From a virus: DNA of 22,090 nucleotides. Of the stretch, positions 2,865 to 17,308 are shown piece by piece. The notes beneath the pieces are model-generated. The model was given only the letters and a program-made list of their open reading frames with translations, made no database searches and had not been told where the DNA came from. Both the position numbers and the translations under genes were made by a program. Within the stretch, counting starts at the first letter, position 1, and every line of letters begins with the position of its first letter. The DNA lies in the IMG/VR virus record IMGVR_UViG_3300032174_000063, positions 1 through 22,090 of that record. The stretch is one strand, 5' to 3'.

Positions 2865-4831
2865 TTGAGCATCTCCCGGTCCGCCTTGCCGCGCAGCGCA
2901 AGCATGCGGATTTGGGTCACGTTCGACCCGCCCGCCACCGTTAGCCCCAAATACTGGCTGCCGCCCTCATTCGCCGCCAAGGGGTCCAATTGATAGGCCA
3001 CCGGTGAACCTTTCAACGGCACGGGCAGGGCGGCCGATGAGCCCAATTCGGTGTCCACGGTCACCGTGACGCCAGAATTCGCCGCTCCCGCCCAGTTTGC
3101 AGCGAGCGCCGCGTTGAGCGACTGCTTCTCGTGCAGGGGGGCGCCGCCGTCCCACAGCTTCGTTTTCAGAAGCCACGACGTGAGTCCCACGCTCGCGCTG
3201 AACGCCTGCACCATGGTGTGCCCCTGCCACACATAGAGCGTCTGATTGCCGGCGACGGACACCGAGACCATCGCCTGGGACGCAGCGCCGGTGAGCGAGG
3301 CGACCCACCAGCGTCCTCGGAAGAACAGCGCCAAGAGCGTGCGCGTCGCGCCGCCTTGAGTAAACGTATCTTTGAAGCTGAAGAGGAACGTCGCGCATAG
3401 CTCGCCGCGAATGAGTACCGCCCCGCCGTACGCGAGCGGGAGGGTGAGGCCGCCCAACAGCACCGAGGTGATCTGCTGGATGATGCCGGAGATTTTCTGC
3501 GAAATTTTCTCCGGCGTCGCGCCCGACAGCAGGTAGAACCCGCTCGAATGGTAGAACACGATCGCGCGGTAGTAGGCGAAGATCGAGGTCGGCGCCGAGG
3601 TCCCCACGGAACTCGGGATATTGATGCGCGAGAACGAGGTGACGCCTGCGCTCACTGTGACATTCGAGAGCGCGTCGATCGAGGTGTCGCCGAAAATGTA
3701 CAGATAGTTGTTCGCGGCATAGAGTGCGGTGATGTTGTTGTGCAGGTAGGCATCGTTGATGGTGAACGAACCGCCCGCCCCGCCAAAGGCATTGTAAGCG
3801 TTGATATCGGTGAACAAGACGGTTCGCAAGAACTGGATCCACACCCGCCCCGCGTAGGTCGCGATACTCGTCCCGCCAATCACCCCGCTGGAGGTCAAGG
3901 TAAAGGCGGTCAATTTCAAGGGCGGGGTGTGCGCGGTGGCGAAATCCCACACCGTATCGCCGGTGACGTAGCCCGTGCCAGGCTTGACGATGGTCAAGGA
4001 CACGCCCTGCATTTTGATCCCGAACGTCGCGCCCGTGCCCGCCGTTGCGCCGCCGATCACGCTCCCGGTGGGGCCCGTCGCGACCAACGTCTGCGAGGCC
4101 GGCCCCGGATACGCGCCGCCCGTCGCGATGGTGAAGGTCGCGATGGCCCCGCCCCCCCCAAACGTCGCGACAATGAGTTGCGCGGGCGTCGTCGGGCTCC
4201 CGTCGGTCAGCAGTAGCACATCGCCGACCGCGTAGCCCGTGCCGCCCGCGGTCAAGGTCGCGGACACGACACTATAGGAGGTGCGAAACACGCCGCCCGT
4301 GCCGTTGCTCGCGAGATTCTGCCCCAAGGATTGCCCGCCAGTGAGCACGGTGGCGAGGGTGAGCGTACCCCCAGATGCGGTGTTGTTCTGCGCGGTCAAG
4401 GTCGCCGGGGTCGTGATGTTCCAGTCCCAGTACCCGGTGGGGTCGATGATGAGGAGCCCCTGGTTGTTGTACTGCGTCGCGGCCGTTTGGTTCGAGGTGA
4501 GCCCGGTGATGATCTGCGTCGCGATGAAGGTCGAGAGGTTGACGACGTAGCCCTTGCCGCTATTCGCCCACACGGCAAAGCAGTAGTCGATGCCGGCGGC
4601 GTTGAAGTTTTGCGTGTAGGTGGGCGGCCCCGTCTCCGCGGTCACGGTCGTGAAGGCGAGCGACGGGCCATTGACAGGATAGAGTTTCGCCCCGCCGATC
4701 GGGATTGCGTTCTCGCACCAGTGGAATTCGTTATCCTGGATCGCCTCGCGCTCATCCAAGGTGTTCATGCCCTCGAATTCGCGCAAGATGAACTCGGGGT
4801 TCTGGCCGCCGGCATTCATCGCGCGGGCCAT
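2861..4831 (-). CDS. Tail / packaged-DNA stabilisation-like protein (P22 gp10-type role) with Gly-Tyr repeat insert
   Basis: The protein has 656 residues with ATG at 4831-4829 and a 3 nt gap to the preceding adaptor gene. The N-terminus (FILREFEGMNTLDEREAIQDN then CENAIPIGGAKLYPVNGP) follows the pattern of podovirus stabilisation or tail-hub proteins, which begin with F-x-G-x-N and an N-A-x-x-x-x-G turn. The rest is beta-rich with repeated Trp/Tyr-Gly strands (YLYIFGDTSIDAL, FYLLSGATPEKIS), as in a beta-propeller that closes the portal channel. Residues about 190-300 form a Gly-rich insertion with GGTGYAVGD and PGTGYVTGD motifs that also occurs in two neighbouring virion genes. The role as a head-completion or tail protein is inferred from gene order (adaptor before, internal proteins after) and this N-terminal pattern. 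Confidence 0.82.
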   Translation of the reverse strand: MARAMNAGGQNPEFILREFEGMNTLDEREAIQDNEFHWCENAIPIGGAKLYPVNGPSLAFTTVTAETGPPTYTQNFNAAGIDYCFAVWANSGKGYVVNLSTFIATQIITGLTSNQTAATQYNNQGLLIIDPTGYWDWNITTPATLTAQNNTASGGTLTLATVLTGGQSLGQNLASNGTGGVFRTSYSVVSATLTAGGTGYAVGDVLLLTDGSPTTPAQLIVATFGGGGAIATFTIATGGAYPGPASQTLVATGPTGSVIGGATAGTGATFGIKMQGVSLTIVKPGTGYVTGDTVWDFATAHTPPLKLTAFTLTSSGVIGGTSIATYAGRVWIQFLRTVLFTDINAYNAFGGAGGSFTINDAYLHNNITALYAANNYLYIFGDTSIDALSNVTVSAGVTSFSRINIPSSVGTSAPTSIFAYYRAIVFYHSSGFYLLSGATPEKISQKISGIIQQITSVLLGGLTLPLAYGGAVLIRGELCATFLFSFKDTFTQGGATRTLLALFFRGRWWVASLTGAASQAMVSVSVAGNQTLYVWQGHTMVQAFSASVGLTSWLLKTKLWDGGAPLHEKQSLNAALAANWAGAANSGVTVTVDTELGSSAALPVPLKGSPVAYQLDPLAANEGGSQYLGLTVAGGSNVTQIRMLALRGKADREMLK

Positions 4832-7516: not shown

Positions 7517-8032
7517 CTACTCCTGAATCGTCACGTGGATCCACGCACGACCATGAACGATGCGCCAAATATTTTGTCGTGACACGTTGAATCTCTTGGC
7601 CAACTGAGCCTGAGTGTGTCCTGTGCGATTAAGTCTCAAAATTTCCTTCACCTGAACCTCAGTCAAAGTGTGGCGAGTTGACGATTCGCCGCGACGAAAA
7701 GACGCATTTTTGGACCAATGATGATCCTTGCCGGTCGCCCGACGACCTCTGTCCAAGGCATCCTTTTGATTTTGTTTACCGTCTCCCAGATACAAATGCT
7801 CAGGGTTGACACAAGGTTTGACATCGCAGCGATGAAGAACCCACAGCCCTTCAGGAATCCGACCATGCAGATGCTCATACATGCCCCGATGAGCGAGCCA
7901 AGGACGATTGTGATACCAGATACATCCATACCCGTCCGGGAAACGATTGCCAGTCCAAATCCAACAGCCATTATTGTCAACACGGTAATGGCCATCCAAT
8001 TTTTCTTTGAGAGGAACCTTCCGCGCAGGCAT
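7517..8032 (-). CDS. HNH homing-type endonuclease with C-terminal HTH
   Basis: The protein has 171 residues. ATG 8032-8030 has a strong GGAGGAG site seven bases upstream. The HNH core is visible at about residues 23-85: NGCWIWTG, then LHRCDVKPCVNPEHLYLGD with His67, Asp70, Asn76 and His79 as likely catalytic or structural residues and Cys ligands. A helix-turn-helix (TQAQLAKRFNVSRQNIWRIV, about 140-159) follows and probably provides DNA specificity. It lies between the major capsid and Gly-rich virion genes, is visibly more AT-rich than they are, and has its own candidate promoter, all fitting a free-standing mobile endonuclease. It resembles the HNH gene at 16734-17060. Such enzymes cut an uninvaded sister locus to spread; the target is not deducible here. 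Confidence 0.93.
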   Translation of the reverse strand: MPARKVPLKEKLDGHYRVDNNGCWIWTGNRFPDGYGCIWYHNRPWLAHRGMYEHLHGRIPEGLWVLHRCDVKPCVNPEHLYLGDGKQNQKDALDRGRRATGKDHHWSKNASFRRGESSTRHTLTEVQVKEILRLNRTGHTQAQLAKRFNVSRQNIWRIVHGRAWIHVTIQE

Positions 8033-9973: not shown

Positions 9974-10444
9974 TTACGCCGCCGCCGGGGCGGCTTGAGG
10001 TTTCTGTTGGCTCATCATCTTCATGAGTTGCTGCTGGACGTCCGTTCCGCCGCCCATCTGCGGCATGCGCTTGACCATTTGCATGACTTCGGCGGGCACT
10101 AGGTCGGAAGTATCACGCTTTCCCACCAAAGAGCCAAGGATTTTCAGTGCGGAGAGGATTTTCGCCCCTTCGGGGGACTCGGAGCCGAACGCCGGCAAGG
10201 CTTCCTCCAACATGTTGGTCGCAATATGGAGGTTGGTGTGCGCGGCGGTTTTGACCCCGCGCTTATCCTGTGGGGTGGACATCGGCGCGCCGCCGGGGGA
10301 CTGCCCCGGCCCTTGGGTACCGGCGGACGGTTGCGCACCAGGACCCCCCGCTCCCGGCATGGCGGACGGGGGCGGCGCGCCCATGGCGGGGCCTTGACCA
10401 CCGCCTTGCATCGCGCGCTGCATCACGGCGGGAGGGACGCTCAC
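9974..10444 (-). CDS. 156-residue head-morphogenesis-block protein, unknown function
   Basis: The start is GTG 10444-10442, which overlaps the TGA of the tiny ORF before it (GTGA), with GAGG five bases upstream. The first 55 residues are low-complexity Pro/Gly/Ala/Gln (PGAGGPGAQPSAG). Residues about 60-135 form an amphipathic helical region (LHIATNMLEEALPAFG, AKILSALKILGSLVGKRDTS, PAEVMQMVKRMPQMGG). It ends with Gln/Ala. No enzyme or DNA-binding motif is visible. Such proteins between portal and scaffold are frequent in this type of phage and usually unannotated. It could be a minor scaffold or a portal accessory factor; neither is shown by sequence. Confidence 0.8.
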   Translation of the reverse strand: MSVPPAVMQRAMQGGGQGPAMGAPPPSAMPGAGGPGAQPSAGTQGPGQSPGGAPMSTPQDKRGVKTAAHTNLHIATNMLEEALPAFGSESPEGAKILSALKILGSLVGKRDTSDLVPAEVMQMVKRMPQMGGGTDVQQQLMKMMSQQKPQAAPAAA

Positions 10445-10539
10445 ACGCGCCTCGACTTGCGTCCGCGACGCTTGTAGCCGTGATGGCCGGAGGCGTCACA
10501 CACGCTTGGAGGGCTTGCGGCGCTGTTGATTGCGCGCAT
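10441..10539 (-). CDS. Tiny basic protein, 32 residues, coupled to the downstream gene
   Basis: ATG 10539-10537 is preceded by GGAGG, which lies within the repeat shared with the preceding ORF. The product begins MRAINSAASPPSVCDASGHH and ends GYKRRGRKSRRV. Its TGA overlaps the GTG start of the 156-residue gene (GTGA), the usual spacing for real genes in this genome. The C-terminus is strongly basic, with eight Arg/Lys in the last twelve residues. It could bind nucleic acid or a negatively charged virion surface. No family is recognised and no homology is claimed. Confidence 0.6.
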   Translation of the reverse strand: MRAINSAASPPSVCDASGHHGYKRRGRKSRRV

Positions 10540-10609
10540 GCCGACCTCCGCCGCCGCGCTTGCCCGCGGGGAGGACGGCATTATCCTTGGCGTTGTCGTT
10601 TTCGGGCAT
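10496..10609 (-). CDS. Tiny basic protein, 37 residues, copy B of a duplicated VLPAGKRGGGGR motif
   Basis: ATG 10609-10607 has GGAGGT four bases upstream, inside the codons for Gly-Gly-Gly-Gly-Arg of the previous ORF. The product reads MPENDNAKDNAVLPAGKRGG then GGRHARNQQRRKPSKRV. The block VLPAGKRGGGGR[HY]AR is shared with the preceding ORF. Codon differences between the two copies are mostly silent (CTC/TTG, GCG/GCC, GGC/GGT, CAG/CAA), which suggests both are translated. The frame could be read further upstream, but that would cover the ribosome site of the 11-residue ORF, so the ATG with a Shine-Dalgarno sequence is preferred. The function is unknown; the Arg/Gly-rich end suggests nucleic-acid binding. 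Confidence 0.62.
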   Translation of the reverse strand: MPENDNAKDNAVLPAGKRGGGGRHARNQQRRKPSKRV

Positions 10610-10640
10610 ACCGACCTCCGCCGCCGCGCTTACCGGCGGG
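10541..10640. repeat. Two 30-base direct repeats, 70 bases apart, in the tiny-ORF cluster
   Basis: Copies at 10541-10570 and 10611-10640 match at 28 of 30 bases, and similarity continues a little further on both sides. The two mismatches fall on third codon positions of the frames at 10581-10697 and 10496-10609. On the minus strand each copy contains GGCGGAGGTCGG, which encodes Gly/Arg and also acts as the ribosome site for an ATG just after it. The 70-base offset is not a multiple of three, so each copy is in a different frame. Confidence 0.85.
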
Positions 10641-10697
10641 CAATACTTGAGTGGGGAACAGCGGCGAGCACGACCCGCCGCCGGTGGGGAAAGGCAT
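10581..10697 (-). CDS. Tiny basic protein, 38 residues, copy A of the duplicated VLPAGKRGGGGR motif
   Basis: ATG 10697-10695 lies four bases after the stop of the 11-residue ORF. The product begins MPFPTGGGSCSPLFPTQ and ends LPAGKRGGGGRYARKRQRQG. No clear Shine-Dalgarno sequence precedes it, so coupling to the ORF before it would be needed. The evidence that it is translated is the C-terminal block shared with the next ORF, with silent differences. The C-terminus is Arg/Lys/Gln-rich, and the N-terminal half is neutral and Pro/Gly-rich. An alternative view is that this frame is an older version of the gene now decaying. Function is unknown. Confidence 0.5.
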   Translation of the reverse strand: MPFPTGGGSCSPLFPTQVLPAGKRGGGGRYARKRQRQG

Positions 10698-10701
10698 GGG
10701 C

Positions 10702-10737
10702 CTACTTCCGCTTGTGACGCCGACGATGCCGAGCCAT
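10702..10737 (-). CDS. Eleven-residue basic peptide MARHRRRHKRK
   Basis: ATG 10737-10735 is preceded by AAGGAG seven bases upstream (CAAGGAGATGACA), one of the best ribosome sites in the block, yet the frame closes after eleven codons with TAG. The product has eight Arg/Lys and two His in eleven residues. It could be a real micro-peptide, a translation-initiation device feeding the next ORF four bases downstream, or the remnant of a longer gene broken by a frameshift. The composition matches the neighbouring tiny ORFs. Confidence 0.5.
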   Translation of the reverse strand: MARHRRRHKRK

Positions 10738-10791
10738 TGTCATCTCCTTGCGTGAGAGAGGCCGCTTTTTGACGGAGCAACCACTACCGTA

Positions 10792-10950
10792 TCAACTGCG
10801 AGAACTTTTCGAGCGTGAGCTTTTGCCGCGCGCCATGCGAATGTGGTACTTGCCTGAAGGGCCGTGATTGAAATTGCGCTTGAAGGCGTGACCCGGTTGG
10901 TGACCGCCGGCGGCGGACTTGGCTCGATCAATGCGTTTGAGTCCGTCCAT
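10792..10950 (-). CDS. Small basic protein, 52 residues, directly after portal
   Basis: ATG 10950-10948 immediately follows the TAA of the portal gene, with AAGGA nine bases upstream. The product reads MDGLKRIDRAKSAAGGHQPG, continues HAFKRNFNHGPSGKYHIRMA and ends RGKSSRSKSSRS. It is rich in Lys, Arg, His and Ser, and its SR-type tail resembles a nucleic-acid-binding tail. No known domain is seen. The tight join to portal and the good ribosome site make it a likely real gene. It opens the cluster of tiny basic ORFs that runs to 10441. Confidence 0.7.
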   Translation of the reverse strand: MDGLKRIDRAKSAAGGHQPGHAFKRNFNHGPSGKYHIRMARGKSSRSKSSRS

Positions 10951-12639
10951 TTACGGTTTTCCTTTGGGGGGTCGTCCGCCTTGGGCCATCATCTGCAATT
11001 CCAACTGCTTCGCCTCGGCTTCCTGCTTCTCGATGACTTTAAGCCGTTCCTTCAACTCTTGCAAGTTGGGCGGATCGTACATATCGAGGAGCGTCGCACG
11101 ATCGATCGCCTTGGCCTCGTGCAAGGTGGTCGCGTCGTGCTTGCGGTCCTCGACGAAAATGGGGCTGGAGGAGTGCCCGTCGACCTTCACCTCGTAGTCG
11201 CGCGTGAACTGCTCAGCGGTGAAGGGGATGAGTTTCCCGTCGATCAGTGCCTGGAAGCGTTGCTCGCTGTGATCTTGCGTTAAGCGCAGGATGAGCCCGG
11301 CGACTTCCTCGGCGCATTCTTCCGCCGCGATCGCGCGCTCCTTCGGGCGACTCGATCCCAACCGCGCCATCAAGTCCGCTTGGCCGCGCGAGCGCACGCC
11401 GGGCTCGCCCTTGCCTTGCAGCACATGCCCCAATCCCGCCTGGTCGTCGAACATGGTGTCGATCTGCGCGACTTCGGCGAAGATATCAGTCGGCATCTCG
11501 GGCGCGTGCACGTCGACCTTGCCCGTCGGCACCGCGCTCGACAAGCGGCTCCCCGAGGTGCCGTACGCTTGGAACTTCTCGTCCTGGATGCCGCCCATGC
11601 CGATCATCGTCATCGGCGGATTGACTTGTTTCGCCAAGAGCGCGCGGATCTCGTAGGTGCGCTGCGTGCGCCACTCCTGCAGCCACGTGAGCCGAGCGAC
11701 GAACGAGCCGCCCCAAAAGTAATCGTAGAGGTTGAACTCCGGGATCACCTTGACGAACGGGCCAATGCCCTTCACATGCCCCATCCAGCGCGAGGGGCGA
11801 TCGTAGATCACCACCTCCGGAGCAGCGCGCGTCACCACTTGATAGTCGTCCTGCTCGTCATCCCAGACGTAGAGATCGCACATGTCGATCAAATCCGCCT
11901 CGACGTGCGGTGAGTAGTCGTAGGAGGGTCCGCGCCCGCCGCCGCCTAGCCCTGAGTCCACGCCCGACATCGCGCCGGGGATCGCGGTCGACACCGCGAG
12001 CCCGCCGACGGGCGAGCCGATCAACAGGCGCGACAGCCCGCTCGACAACGGCGGCAGGTTATCGGTGCGCGACTGACCGACGCGCGCCATGATCGAGTCC
12101 TTGCGCGGGTTACCGGTCAAGTTGTGCGCGAGCTGCGTCTTGGTGATGGTGTAGTGGTGGGTGAACGCTTCCTGATCGGAGAGTTCCGGGAAATCCTCCC
12201 GGAGCACGCCGAACTGGTGCGGCTCGACGAGATAGGAGCGAAAGCGGTTATTGACCCACATGCCCTTCATCAGCATGCAGCCGAAGACTTGGCTCCAGCG
12301 CAGCGCCATCCCAAAGAGGATGTGGGTTTTGCTGACCCGCCACTGCTCGGTGACCTCCTTCGCGAGCGGCACGGCTTTCGCGATGTCATCGTGCGGCGCT
12401 TCGGTGCCCAAGTGCAGCGAGAAGCGCAGCGTGTCGGGCGAGTAAATGAAACTTGAGAGCGTTTCGACCGTGCTGCCGATCTTGTTGTAGGGCGCGCCCT
12501 TCGCGTCCGCGCTACCAAACAGGTAGTAGTTCCTCAACACCTGATAGAAGTTGAACCGATCAGTGCGCGAGGCCGTGCATTGGCGCACCAGCTCATCGTA
12601 GAGCGCGCTGCGTTCGCCTAAGTCTGCGGGGAGTTTCAC
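10951..12639 (-). CDS. Portal protein
   Basis: The protein has 562 residues and starts at GTG 12639-12637, overlapping the upstream stop (GTGA). Portal features are the N-terminal NFYQVLRNYYLFGSADAKG region, THILFGMALRWSQVFGCMLM (stem-side helix region), a wing-like beta domain (YVWDDEQDDYQVVTRAAPEV), the conserved-looking IGPFVKVIPEFNLYDYFWGG, then WLQEWRTQRTYEIRALLAKQ and a helical C-terminus with VLQGKGEPGVRSRGQADLMA. It ends in a charged, Gln/Lys/Pro-rich tail. Twelve copies would form the DNA channel at one head vertex and contact the terminase and adaptor. Length, the order terminase-portal-scaffold-capsid and the sequence pattern support the call. Confidence 0.9.
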   Translation of the reverse strand: MKLPADLGERSALYDELVRQCTASRTDRFNFYQVLRNYYLFGSADAKGAPYNKIGSTVETLSSFIYSPDTLRFSLHLGTEAPHDDIAKAVPLAKEVTEQWRVSKTHILFGMALRWSQVFGCMLMKGMWVNNRFRSYLVEPHQFGVLREDFPELSDQEAFTHHYTITKTQLAHNLTGNPRKDSIMARVGQSRTDNLPPLSSGLSRLLIGSPVGGLAVSTAIPGAMSGVDSGLGGGGRGPSYDYSPHVEADLIDMCDLYVWDDEQDDYQVVTRAAPEVVIYDRPSRWMGHVKGIGPFVKVIPEFNLYDYFWGGSFVARLTWLQEWRTQRTYEIRALLAKQVNPPMTMIGMGGIQDEKFQAYGTSGSRLSSAVPTGKVDVHAPEMPTDIFAEVAQIDTMFDDQAGLGHVLQGKGEPGVRSRGQADLMARLGSSRPKERAIAAEECAEEVAGLILRLTQDHSEQRFQALIDGKLIPFTAEQFTRDYEVKVDGHSSSPIFVEDRKHDATTLHEAKAIDRATLLDMYDPPNLQELKERLKVIEKQEAEAKQLELQMMAQGGRPPKGKP

Positions 12640-13146: not shown

Positions 13147-13572
13147 TCACCTCTTGAACGCCAGTACGACCGCGTCAAGAGTAGCGCGCTCAGTGGGGGA
13201 ATATCGATGCGTACATGAACCACCCACTTTCATGAGCCGCCTGACCACTAGGCCCTGTTCGGCTTTGTCTCGTTTCAGGATGAGATACGGCAACATATCT
13301 TCAAGTGCCCACCCTACTGCCCGGCCTCCTATAACCCACTTCCAAATCATCCGATCTCGACCGTAACCGGAATTTTTGTAACGCCCAAGAGTGCCACCGT
13401 AAAATCGACGGAATATCTCAAGGGGGCGCGGATCGACTTGTGAAATTTGAATTTGCACTCTATGCCATTTCTTACGAACACGAAAAACACATACGCTACC
13501 TTCGCCGTCGAAGAATCCAGCGAAGTATGCGGCTTGTTCCGGTGTCACTGATTGTCTTTGAATCACGCTCAC
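13147..13572 (-). CDS. LAGLIDADG-type homing endonuclease, single motif
   Basis: The protein has 141 residues. GTG 13572-13570 overlaps the stop of the gene before (GTGA). The motif AAYFAGFFDGEGSVCV (about residues 14-29) is the LAGLIDADG signature, with the acidic Asp/Glu expected to bind metal. One motif and short length imply action as a homodimer. A beta-rich part (VQIQISQVDPRPLEIFRRFY) and a basic helix (PYLILKRDKAEQGLVVRRLM) follow. Its last codons (AAG AGG TGA) double as the ribosome site of the next gene. Free-standing endonucleases of this type spread by cutting phage DNA lacking them; no intron or intein was recognised around it. Confidence 0.9.
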   Translation of the reverse strand: MSVIQRQSVTPEQAAYFAGFFDGEGSVCVFRVRKKWHRVQIQISQVDPRPLEIFRRFYGGTLGRYKNSGYGRDRMIWKWVIGGRAVGWALEDMLPYLILKRDKAEQGLVVRRLMKVGGSCTHRYSPTERATLDAVVLAFKR

Positions 13573-16375: not shown

Positions 16376-16737
16376 TGGCGGCGCCCCGGATTCGGCAACG
16401 GGCCATTGGGGAGCGCGACCGAGGGGGATTCCTCCTGCCCGATGCGCTGGCCCGCGACTTGGCTAAACACCTGCGCGCGCACGTTGCGCTCCAAGTGCCG
16501 GCGCAGCGGGGTGTTCAGCTCGTTGTCCTCGGGTAGGGGCTTGAGCCAGCCGCGCGCCTGCGCCTGCGTGATCAGTTCGTCGGCGAGTTCAAGCGCAAAG
16601 TGAGCCGGGGCGCGCGCGGGCGACTCCCATACCGCCCCCGGCGACTTTAAGAACTCGATCGCGAGCTTGACGCGCAGGTCGAGCTGCACGCCGTTCTGAA
16701 ATTGCTGCAGCACATCGCCAAAGTAGGTTTCGGTCAT
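16372..16737 (-). CDS. 121-residue protein upstream of terminase, unknown (small-terminase candidate by position only)
   Basis: ATG 16737-16735 overlaps the HNH stop (ATGA). The product starts [20 protein letters not shown]. It is mostly helical and acidic early ([20 protein letters not shown]), then basic ([20 protein letters not shown]), with a Pro-rich tail. No HTH is obvious. The small terminase often lies just before the large one, so this is one of two candidates along with 17057-17308, but the evidence is positional only. Confidence 0.72.
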
Positions 16738-17060
16738 TCTTGCACCTGTCTGATTTCAATCGGCCCCGTGTCTACATACCCGCGACAACGACCTTTGCGA
16801 GCAGCGTCTTGCATATTCGTCTTCGCGTCCCCCAAAAACAAGTGATGCGGGTTCACGCAGCAGCGTACGTCGCAGTGATGGCACACCGATAGGTCCTTTG
16901 GAATGACGCCCCCGTGCAGCAGCCAGCACGCGCGGTGAGCGTACATATTCCTCCCCTGGTACTTGAACCGCCCGTACCCCCGATCGTTGCAACTGCCCTC
17001 CCACAACCAGCAGCCCGACTCCGTCACCGGAATCACATGCGACATGAACCGGTCCATCAT
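16734..17060 (-). CDS. HNH homing-type endonuclease
   Basis: I choose ATG 17060-17058, which overlaps the stop of the previous gene (ATGA), giving 108 residues; earlier ATGs in frame exist at 17084 and 17072 and cannot be excluded. The HNH core includes GCWLWEGS at about 17-24 and [19 protein letters not shown] at 60-78, with paired Cys and His as metal and catalytic residues. It is clearly related to the HNH gene at 7517-8032 but lacks the C-terminal HTH. It is overlapped with genes on both sides, so it is translated as part of the operon. Probably a mobile endonuclease; an HNH packaging role next to terminase is also known in phages and cannot be ruled out. Confidence 0.9.
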
Positions 17061-17308
17061 CGAACCCGCCATATGCGGCACCACCCTGGCTTACTCACCC
17101 TCACCTTGAACGCCATGTCCCGGCCATTCTCCACCCGATACCGATACACATAATGCTGCGTTGCCGCTAGGGAGCGGTTGATCTCGATCGGTGACCCGCC
17201 AACCGCCATCGCCTCCAGTGCCTCGTACACCTTTAGCCGCTTGCGACCGCGAACCGCATCCTCTGGCACCGGTGCGTCGCATGGAAGGATAATTAATTCG
17301 GCGGCCAT
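17057..17308 (-). CDS. 83-residue HTH-like protein, first gene of the virion operon
   Basis: ATG 17308-17306 has no Shine-Dalgarno; the candidate promoter -10 ends 11 bases upstream, so the mRNA would be nearly leaderless. The product ([60 protein letters not shown]) has a basic helix and then a helix-turn-helix-like stretch with [19 protein letters not shown]. It may bind DNA. Its place at the head of the packaging block fits either a small terminase or a late regulator. Neither function is shown by a recognised domain. Confidence 0.72.

What the first reader, a model, noticed from the sequence alone, without database searches (positions are those of the whole stretch)
10441..10950. Cluster of overlapping tiny Arg-rich ORFs between portal and scaffold genes
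Five short minus-strand ORFs (52, 11, 38, 37 and 32 codons) fill 510 bases that would usually be left unannotated. All have strongly basic C-termini: RGKSSRSKSSRS, MARHRRRHKRK, GGGGRYARKRQRQG, RNQQRRKPSKRV and GYKRRGRKSRRV. The first and last are tied to their neighbours (TAAATG after portal, GTGA into the 156-residue gene), the 11-codon ORF has a strong AAGGAG and two others have GGAGG. Location in the head-assembly block suggests protamine-like DNA binding or portal/scaffold contacts; that is inference.
Basis: partly seen in the sequence, partly recalled or inferred. Interest (0 to 1): 0.78.

Follow-up and report, generated by a model that had tools for sequence, protein, structure and literature searches.

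The report
Phage polybasic micro-genes with RNA pseudoknot
Between the portal gene and the next head gene, a large group of uncultured environmental phages carries overlooked genes as short as 10-14 codons that make very positively charged peptides, and one of them is preceded in nearly every relative by the same folded RNA (a pseudoknot), so these tiny genes look real and have their own conserved control element.

Summary
In detail: five minus-strand ORFs (52, 11, 38, 37, 32 codons) fill 10441-10950. They are not chance. The 11-codon ORF MARHRRRHKRK recurs behind the portal gene of related phages. Two degenerate searches of all IMG/VR for such peptides gave 30 and 120 contigs, every one at this locus. 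In a sample collected by portal alone, 51 of 55 clusters hold at least one polybasic ORF of 8-16 codons with a Shine-Dalgarno (SD) site; three more have a longer or weak-SD form. Codon changes are mostly synonymous. ORF1 and the ORF3-5 family are conserved too. Searched alone, it found 31 loci, all followed by a polybasic micro-ORF. Best reading: conserved late micro-genes for nucleic-acid-binding peptides acting in head assembly or packaging, expressed under the pseudoknot, perhaps by autogenous control. Genes and RNA are well supported by sequence comparison; translation is untested and function is inferred. Nearest known: viral protamine-like peptides and the T4 gene 32 operator pseudoknot; neither is a demonstrated relative.

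The parts
10951..12639 (-). portal protein gene, upstream anchor of the block
   Evidence: AlphaFold2 model matches the SU10 portal, Foldseek E 5e-16; relative annotated 'portal protein' in MW202825
10792..10950 (-). ORF1, 52-aa basic protein, start abuts the portal stop
   Evidence: conserved in 18 window-clade loci, codon-position differences 0.34/0.32/0.58; a differently worded ORF of about 50-58 aa at the same place in the distant clade
10787..10790 (-). pseudoknot helix P1, 5' arm (ACGG)
   Evidence: compensatory changes in alignments A4 and A5
10776..10782 (-). pseudoknot helix P2, 5' arm (GGUUGCU)
   Evidence: pairs 7/7 with 10760-10766; covariation across clades
10772..10775 (-). pseudoknot helix P1, 3' arm (CCGU)
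10760..10766 (-). pseudoknot helix P2, 3' arm (AGCGGCC)
   Evidence: whole element 10760-10790
10744..10749 (-). Shine-Dalgarno AAGGAG of ORF2
   Evidence: sequence
10702..10737 (-). ORF2, 11-codon micro-gene MARHRRRHKRK (class A)
   Evidence: present or replaced by a longer form in nearly all relatives; all 30 pattern hits in IMG/VR at this locus
10581..10697 (-). ORF3, basic protein with GKRGGGGRYARKRQRQG tail
   Evidence: family in 14 copies from 11 loci, codon-position differences 0.34/0.27/0.64
10496..10609 (-). ORF4, paralogue of ORF3 (GKRGGGGRHARNQQRRKPSKRV); its SD and ATG lie inside the GGGGRYAR codons of ORF3
   Evidence: separate non-overlapping copies in L046; nested start also in L001 and L011
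10441..10539 (-). ORF5, basic protein ending GHHGYKRRGRKSRRV; start nested in ORF4
   Evidence: counterparts in L001, L011, L046, L066
9974..10444 (-).
   Evidence: conserved in all loci; no Pfam match and no significant PHROG match; function unproven

Best explanation
Shown by sequence comparison: the gap behind the portal gene of this phage lineage holds a block of conserved basic micro-genes. It comprises a ~50-aa ORF1, one to three polybasic ORFs of 10-14 codons and, in the window's clade, zero to three Gly/Arg-rich ORFs of about 20-40 codons. The class-A micro-gene (window ORF2) is preceded by a conserved H-type RNA pseudoknot whose 3' end lies about 21 nt before the AUG. Inferred: the peptides are made late, in the same transcript as terminase and portal, and bind nucleic acid by charge. 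They most likely neutralise or organise DNA, or bridge DNA and proteins, during head assembly and packaging. The pseudoknot sits at the upstream edge of the ribosome's landing site and sets the translation level of the micro-gene, most likely by being recognised by a nucleic-acid-binding product of the block (autogenous control, as in T4 gene 32). The confidence given is for the whole chain; for conserved genes plus structured RNA alone it would be about 0.95.
For: Peptide patterns hit only this locus in IMG/VR: 30/30 and 120/120. Enrichment is about 1200-fold over the rest of the same loci. In the portal-selected sample 51/55 clusters have a strict micro-ORF; L013, L062 (extended) and L064 (weak SD) account for three of the other four. 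Codon differences are 57% synonymous against 25% expected, with position 3 at 0.46 against 0.20 and 0.19. Pseudoknot: covariation 0.281 against 0.133 shuffled (A4) and 0.244 against 0.077 (A5), 0/500 shuffles each, and slid registers are far worse. P2 changes wholesale but stays paired, e.g. GGUUUCU/AGAAACC and GGUCUCU/AGAGACC. Reciprocal test: the RNA pattern alone found 31 loci, all with a polybasic micro-ORF 17-27 nt downstream, against about 0.5% at random points. The portal assignment is confirmed by fold.
Against: No translation, virion or binding data exist. A 10-14-residue peptide may be too unstable to act alone. Nothing shows that any peptide binds the pseudoknot, and P2 sequence changes without an obvious matching change in the peptide. 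One clade (L075, L089, L113, L121) keeps the micro-ORFs but lacks this pseudoknot. Phages with remotely similar portals (Phriendly, GiJojo, MG592626) do without any such micro-ORF, so the function is not general. One paper states there is no evidence that basic proteins contribute much to neutralising phage dsDNA (PMC3281028).
Confidence: 0.42

Rival explanations
1. Leader-peptide reading: the act of translating the polybasic micro-ORF matters, not the peptide. Slow or stalled ribosomes on Arg/Lys/His codons, together with the pseudoknot upstream and hairpins downstream, tune expression of the downstream capsid genes.
For: Very short ORFs with strong SDs lie between two gene groups; stable hairpins follow many micro-ORFs; a promoter-like TTGACA lies before the next gene in L049.
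Against: Amino acids are conserved beyond charge (exact MRKARKGRKSRK in many clusters) while codons drift, including Ser TCA/AGC switches. Two tandem paralogous micro-ORFs are usual in the distant clade. Most downstream hairpins lack a U-run. L013, L014 and L062 turn the ORF into a 30-32 aa helix plus basic tail.
Confidence: 0.15
2. Assembly cofactors: the peptides bind portal, scaffold or capsid protein (acidic surfaces) and help portal incorporation or terminase docking, with no direct DNA role.
For: Invariable position between portal and head-assembly genes; family-specific, not general; distinct conserved sequences per class.
Against: No structural or binding data; composition is that of nucleic-acid binders; co-variation with portal was not tested.
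Confidence: 0.2
3. Host-directed peptides: Arg-rich RNA-binding or membrane-active peptides that act on host RNA, ribosomes or membranes late in infection (for example lysis timing).
For: Extended forms carry an apparently amphipathic helix before the basic tail (MSEALMFDPLGEALHALQALLSMFRRHRRHRR); Arg-rich motif composition.
Against: The helix is absent in most members; the location is the head block, not a lysis or early-gene block.
Confidence: 0.12
4. The RNA or DNA element is the functional part (for example a packaging or processing signal) and the short ORFs are a by-product of conserved DNA.
For: The element is strongly conserved and present when ORF1 and ORF3-5 are absent (L002, L003).
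Against: Micro-ORF DNA varies at synonymous sites while the peptide is kept; the ORF lies outside the pseudoknot; the clade lacking the pseudoknot keeps the micro-ORFs; conserved G-U pairs point to RNA, not DNA.
Confidence: 0.05

Closest known systems
Phage T4 gene 32 translational operator (H-type RNA pseudoknot; PMC535899)
   Same: A small phage mRNA pseudoknot upstream of the SD of a gene for a nucleic-acid-binding protein; sequence diverges among relatives while structure is kept.
   Different: Product is a 10-14 aa polybasic peptide, not a single-strand-binding protein; no UUAAA repeats identified; the pseudoknot ends about 21 nt from the AUG; autoregulation untested here.
Small Arg-rich protamine-like proteins of Adenoviridae, Asfarviridae and Baculoviridae (as described in PMC3281028)
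   Same: Short, extremely basic, virus-encoded; plausible genome neutralisation.
   Different: No sequence relation shown; these are tailed-phage genes of 10-14 codons in tandem, with an RNA element; virion presence unknown.
Downstream-peptide RNA motif, RF01704 (PMC2864571)
   Same: A structured RNA in the 5' UTR of short conserved ORFs (17-100 aa) of no known family.
   Different: Cyanobacterial, proposed to resemble the glnA riboswitch; no Rfam family matches this element; these ORFs are shorter and polybasic.
Small-gene catalogues of phages and microbiomes (Fremin et al. 2022, PMC9254267, not held; GMSC, PMC11364881)
   Same: Show that many unannotated small genes exist.
   Different: Could not be checked for these peptides; neither the RNA element nor the locus is known to me from them.

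Membership tests
Viral protamine-like core peptides | Very high Arg/Lys content in a short virus-encoded protein | tested here: met
   At least 50% R/K in 8-16 codon ORFs, 143 cases
Viral protamine-like core peptides | Packaged in virions and bound to the genome | not testable with these tools
   No proteomics available
Viral protamine-like core peptides | Sequence homology to a known core peptide | tested here: inconclusive
   No match of ORF1 in Pfam, PHROGs or NCBIfam, of ORF3 in PHROGs, or of ORF4 and ORF5 in PHROGs and NCBIfam; the 10-14 aa micro-peptides are too short for these searches
T4 gene 32-type autogenous pseudoknot operator | H-type pseudoknot 5' of the SD with structure kept while sequence diverges | tested here: met
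   Covariation in two clades
T4 gene 32-type autogenous pseudoknot operator | Downstream gene encodes a nucleic-acid-binding protein that represses its own translation | not testable with these tools
   Basic composition only
Known Rfam RNA family | Covariance-model match | tested here: not met
   No match at gathering threshold in the window, none at E up to 5 in five loci
Protein-coding gene (micro-ORFs) | Excess synonymous change, conserved frame, RBS, synteny | tested here: met
Protein-coding gene (micro-ORFs) | Translation observed | not testable with these tools
   No ribosome profiling or mass spectrometry

The most novel reading that the evidence does not exclude
A phage-specific circuit in which Arg/Lys-rich peptides of 10-14 residues, among the shortest widely conserved phage gene products I know of, both bind DNA during head filling and recognise a dedicated mRNA pseudoknot to control their own synthesis: a peptide-RNA autoregulated protamine system in tailed phages.
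Probability: 0.25. Interest if true: 0.9.

Novelty: new variant of a known kind. Interest (0 to 1): 0.78.

Why it matters
Genes of 10-14 codons are below the cut-off of ordinary annotation. In the two annotated relatives (MW202825, MW202753) the micro-ORFs are not called, and reverse-strand ORFs are annotated over them and the RNA element. Here such genes are shown by conservation, not expression, in a lineage with at least 561 contigs in IMG/VR, together with an apparently undescribed covarying RNA pseudoknot tied to them. If the peptides enter heads, they would contradict the view that tailed phages hardly use basic proteins to neutralise DNA. If they bind the pseudoknot, they would be a minimal peptide-RNA regulatory pair. 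The pairing also gives a search handle: RNA motif plus polybasic ORF.

Tried and rejected
A conserved peptide within the element (MAAPxxKWPL): rejected, because the frame is not kept between loci and the conservation is explained by the pseudoknot. Frameshift pseudoknot: rejected, because ORF1 or the first micro-ORF stops well upstream of the element. boxA-like antitermination site and direct-repeat protein site: considered from the sequence, not supported once the pairing was seen. Known RNA family: no Rfam match. Host from prophages: only four MAG contigs with conflicting taxa, not usable. Extension to phages with N4-like or actinophage portals: no such micro-ORFs. Intrinsic terminator in the window gap: none found. 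My first pseudoknot scan scored freely and gave only moderate separation from shuffles (46/105 against 6/80 at the cut-off); the alignment-based pair counts are the evidence I rely on. Structure of the 156-aa neighbour: low confidence, no function drawn. Literature searches found no earlier description, but the library lacks many journals.

Full report
What was checked. The window is a 22.1-kb IMG/VR phage fragment. Its minus strand runs terminase (by eye, not tested here), portal, the reported block, a 156-aa gene, a 61-aa gene, a 197-aa gene and a capsid gene (PHROG match E 6e-23). The portal identity was weak by sequence (Pfam SU10_portal, E 0.002, below cut-off) but clear by fold: an AlphaFold2 model (pLDDT 74) matches the SU10 portal at E 5e-16 and many other portals. 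The five ORFs exist as described.

Conservation. Portal-based search of IMG/VR gave 18 close loci. A profile search then gave at least 561 relatives, of which 80 were kept. ORF1 is conserved across the close loci, with codon-position differences of 0.34/0.32/0.58 in 18 loci. ORF2 or its extended form is present in all close loci whose gap is complete, as MARHRRRHKRK, MARRHRRHKRK, MRRHRRHKRK and similar. In L013, L014 and L062 it is replaced by a 30-32 aa protein made of an apparently amphipathic segment plus the same kind of tail (FRRHRRHKR). L002-L004 lack ORF1 and ORF3-5 and keep only ORF2 and its RNA element. In the distant clade (portal about 40% identical, including MW202825 and MW202753) there are usually an ORF1 analogue and two tandem micro-ORFs, MYKxxKRGRKTRR and M(A)RKARKGRKSRK.

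Is it more than chance? A degenerate DNA pattern for MARH[RK]R[RK]HKR matched 21 stretches and one for MARRHRRHKR matched 9 in all IMG/VR; all 30 lie in this gap, and each ORF stops after 10-11 codons. Across 93 gap clusters (90% nucleotide identity) strict micro-ORFs occur at 2.66 per kb against 0.0022 per kb elsewhere. Because pattern-found loci favour the peptide, the test was repeated on portal-found loci only: 51 of 55 clusters carry at least one. Of the four without, L013 and L062 have the extended form, L064 has MARRHRRGKRR with a weak SD, and L132 has a less basic 20-aa ORF. Codon differences between homologous micro-ORFs are 57% synonymous against 25% for random single changes, and position 3 differs about 2.3 times more than positions 1 and 2.

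ORF3-5. These belong to a family with the core RGGGG[RK]YAR followed by Arg/Lys/Gln/Ser. Fourteen copies from 11 loci differ by codon position 0.34/0.27/0.64. Copy number varies from none to three. In L046 three separate ORFs correspond to window ORF3, ORF4 and ORF5, at least two of them with a clear SD. In the window, L001 and L011 the codons for GGGGRYAR (GGCGGAGGTCGCTATGCG type) also supply the SD and ATG of the next, overlapping ORF (sequence). Start sites of ORF3 and ORF5 remain uncertain.

The RNA element. Between ORF1 and ORF2 a conserved stretch, GGTATGGCTGCTCC...AAAAGTGGCC, is not kept in any reading frame. It folds as an H-type pseudoknot: P1 (NNNGG/CCNNN) closes a loop whose GGCUGCU pairs with downstream AGUGGCC (P2). 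MAFFT alignments made without structure information were tested; the structure itself was first recognised by eye on these sequences. In the window clade (18 sequences) 94% of cells pair, with 22 double-change cells against 7.8 in shuffles and covariation 0.281 against 0.133. In the distant clade (22 sequences) the covariation is 0.244 against 0.077. Slid registers score far lower on cells paired, double-change cells and covariation score. P1 changes completely between relatives (GUGG/CCAC, GCAG/CUGC, AUGG/CCAU). P2 appears as GGCUGCU/AGUGGCC, GGCUGCC/GGUGGCC, GGUUUCU/AGAAACC, GGUCUCU/AGAGACC and, in the window, GGUUGCU/AGCGGCC. The tandem U-G/G-U pair in the middle of P2 is invariant or nearly so in the window clade, which argues for RNA rather than DNA; in part of the distant clade it is replaced by two pyrimidine mismatches. 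Eighty of 83 aligned loci keep at least 5 of 7 P2 pairs; in the other three (L111, L131, L137) the stretch taken was not in front of a class-A ORF carrying the element. No Rfam family matches.

Independent prediction. The RNA pattern was searched by itself in all IMG/VR. It gave 31 loci, ten of which the peptide patterns had not found. All 31 have a polybasic micro-ORF whose ATG lies 17-27 nt after P2, including new sequences (MARKARKHGRKARK, MARHKRKGRKSKR, MARRSRRGRRKGK, MFQPLEAKRGRKGRKHRR); random points give 0.5%. This test was made after the model was formed and could have failed.

Mechanism. Shown by comparison: conserved coding, conserved RNA fold, and fixed linkage and spacing. From general knowledge: a structure ending about 21 nt before the AUG abuts the 30S initiation footprint, so an effect on initiation is plausible. 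Inferred: late expression with terminase and portal (same strand, tight gene contacts); nucleic-acid binding by charge; a role in head assembly or packaging; and autogenous control through the pseudoknot, by analogy with T4 gene 32 (PMC535899). The chief rivals are a leader-peptide function and protein contacts in assembly; the data do not separate these. The clade with MRRKGRKARR-type ORFs lacks the pseudoknot but keeps the micro-ORFs, so the peptide can exist without the RNA.

Limits. All evidence is comparative. Loci overlap in origin, so counts are of sequences, not independent events; clusters at 90% identity reduce but do not remove this. The host is unknown. Novelty claims rest on the libraries and the open-access papers searched.

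Noticed in passing
L049 6779-7039 (minus) and L050 4740-5038 (minus), i.e. MW202825 and MW202753: Annotated reverse-strand 'hypothetical proteins' lie over the micro-ORFs and pseudoknot and are probably mis-annotations; the micro-ORFs themselves are not annotated.
   Followed up: partly
L013, L014, L062 portal-scaffold gaps: The micro-ORF is replaced by a 30-32 aa protein: apparently amphipathic helix (FDPLGEALHALQALLSMF type) plus the same kind of RRHRRHKR tail.
   Followed up: partly
L062 5583-5658: A tRNA-Met (CAT) gene sits inside the gap just after the micro-ORF.
   Followed up: no
L075, L089, L113, L121 gaps: These have no pseudoknot of this type; instead a conserved GGGGACGAYCACAC-like stretch and, in most, a CCCGCGATAGCGGG hairpin lie between the tandem micro-ORFs.
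   Followed up: no
L082, L086, L098 and others, after the class-A micro-ORF: A G-rich/C-rich hairpin is followed closely by TTGACA, perhaps a promoter with operator for the capsid genes (promoter-like site in L049).
   Followed up: no
L125, about 3000-3960: About 1 kb of extra sequence between portal and micro-ORFs, perhaps a mobile insertion.
   Followed up: no
window 7517-8032, 13147-13572, 16734-17084 (minus): Three ORFs that read like homing endonucleases (HNH, LAGLIDADG-like, HNH) inserted among structural genes; judged by eye only.
   Followed up: no
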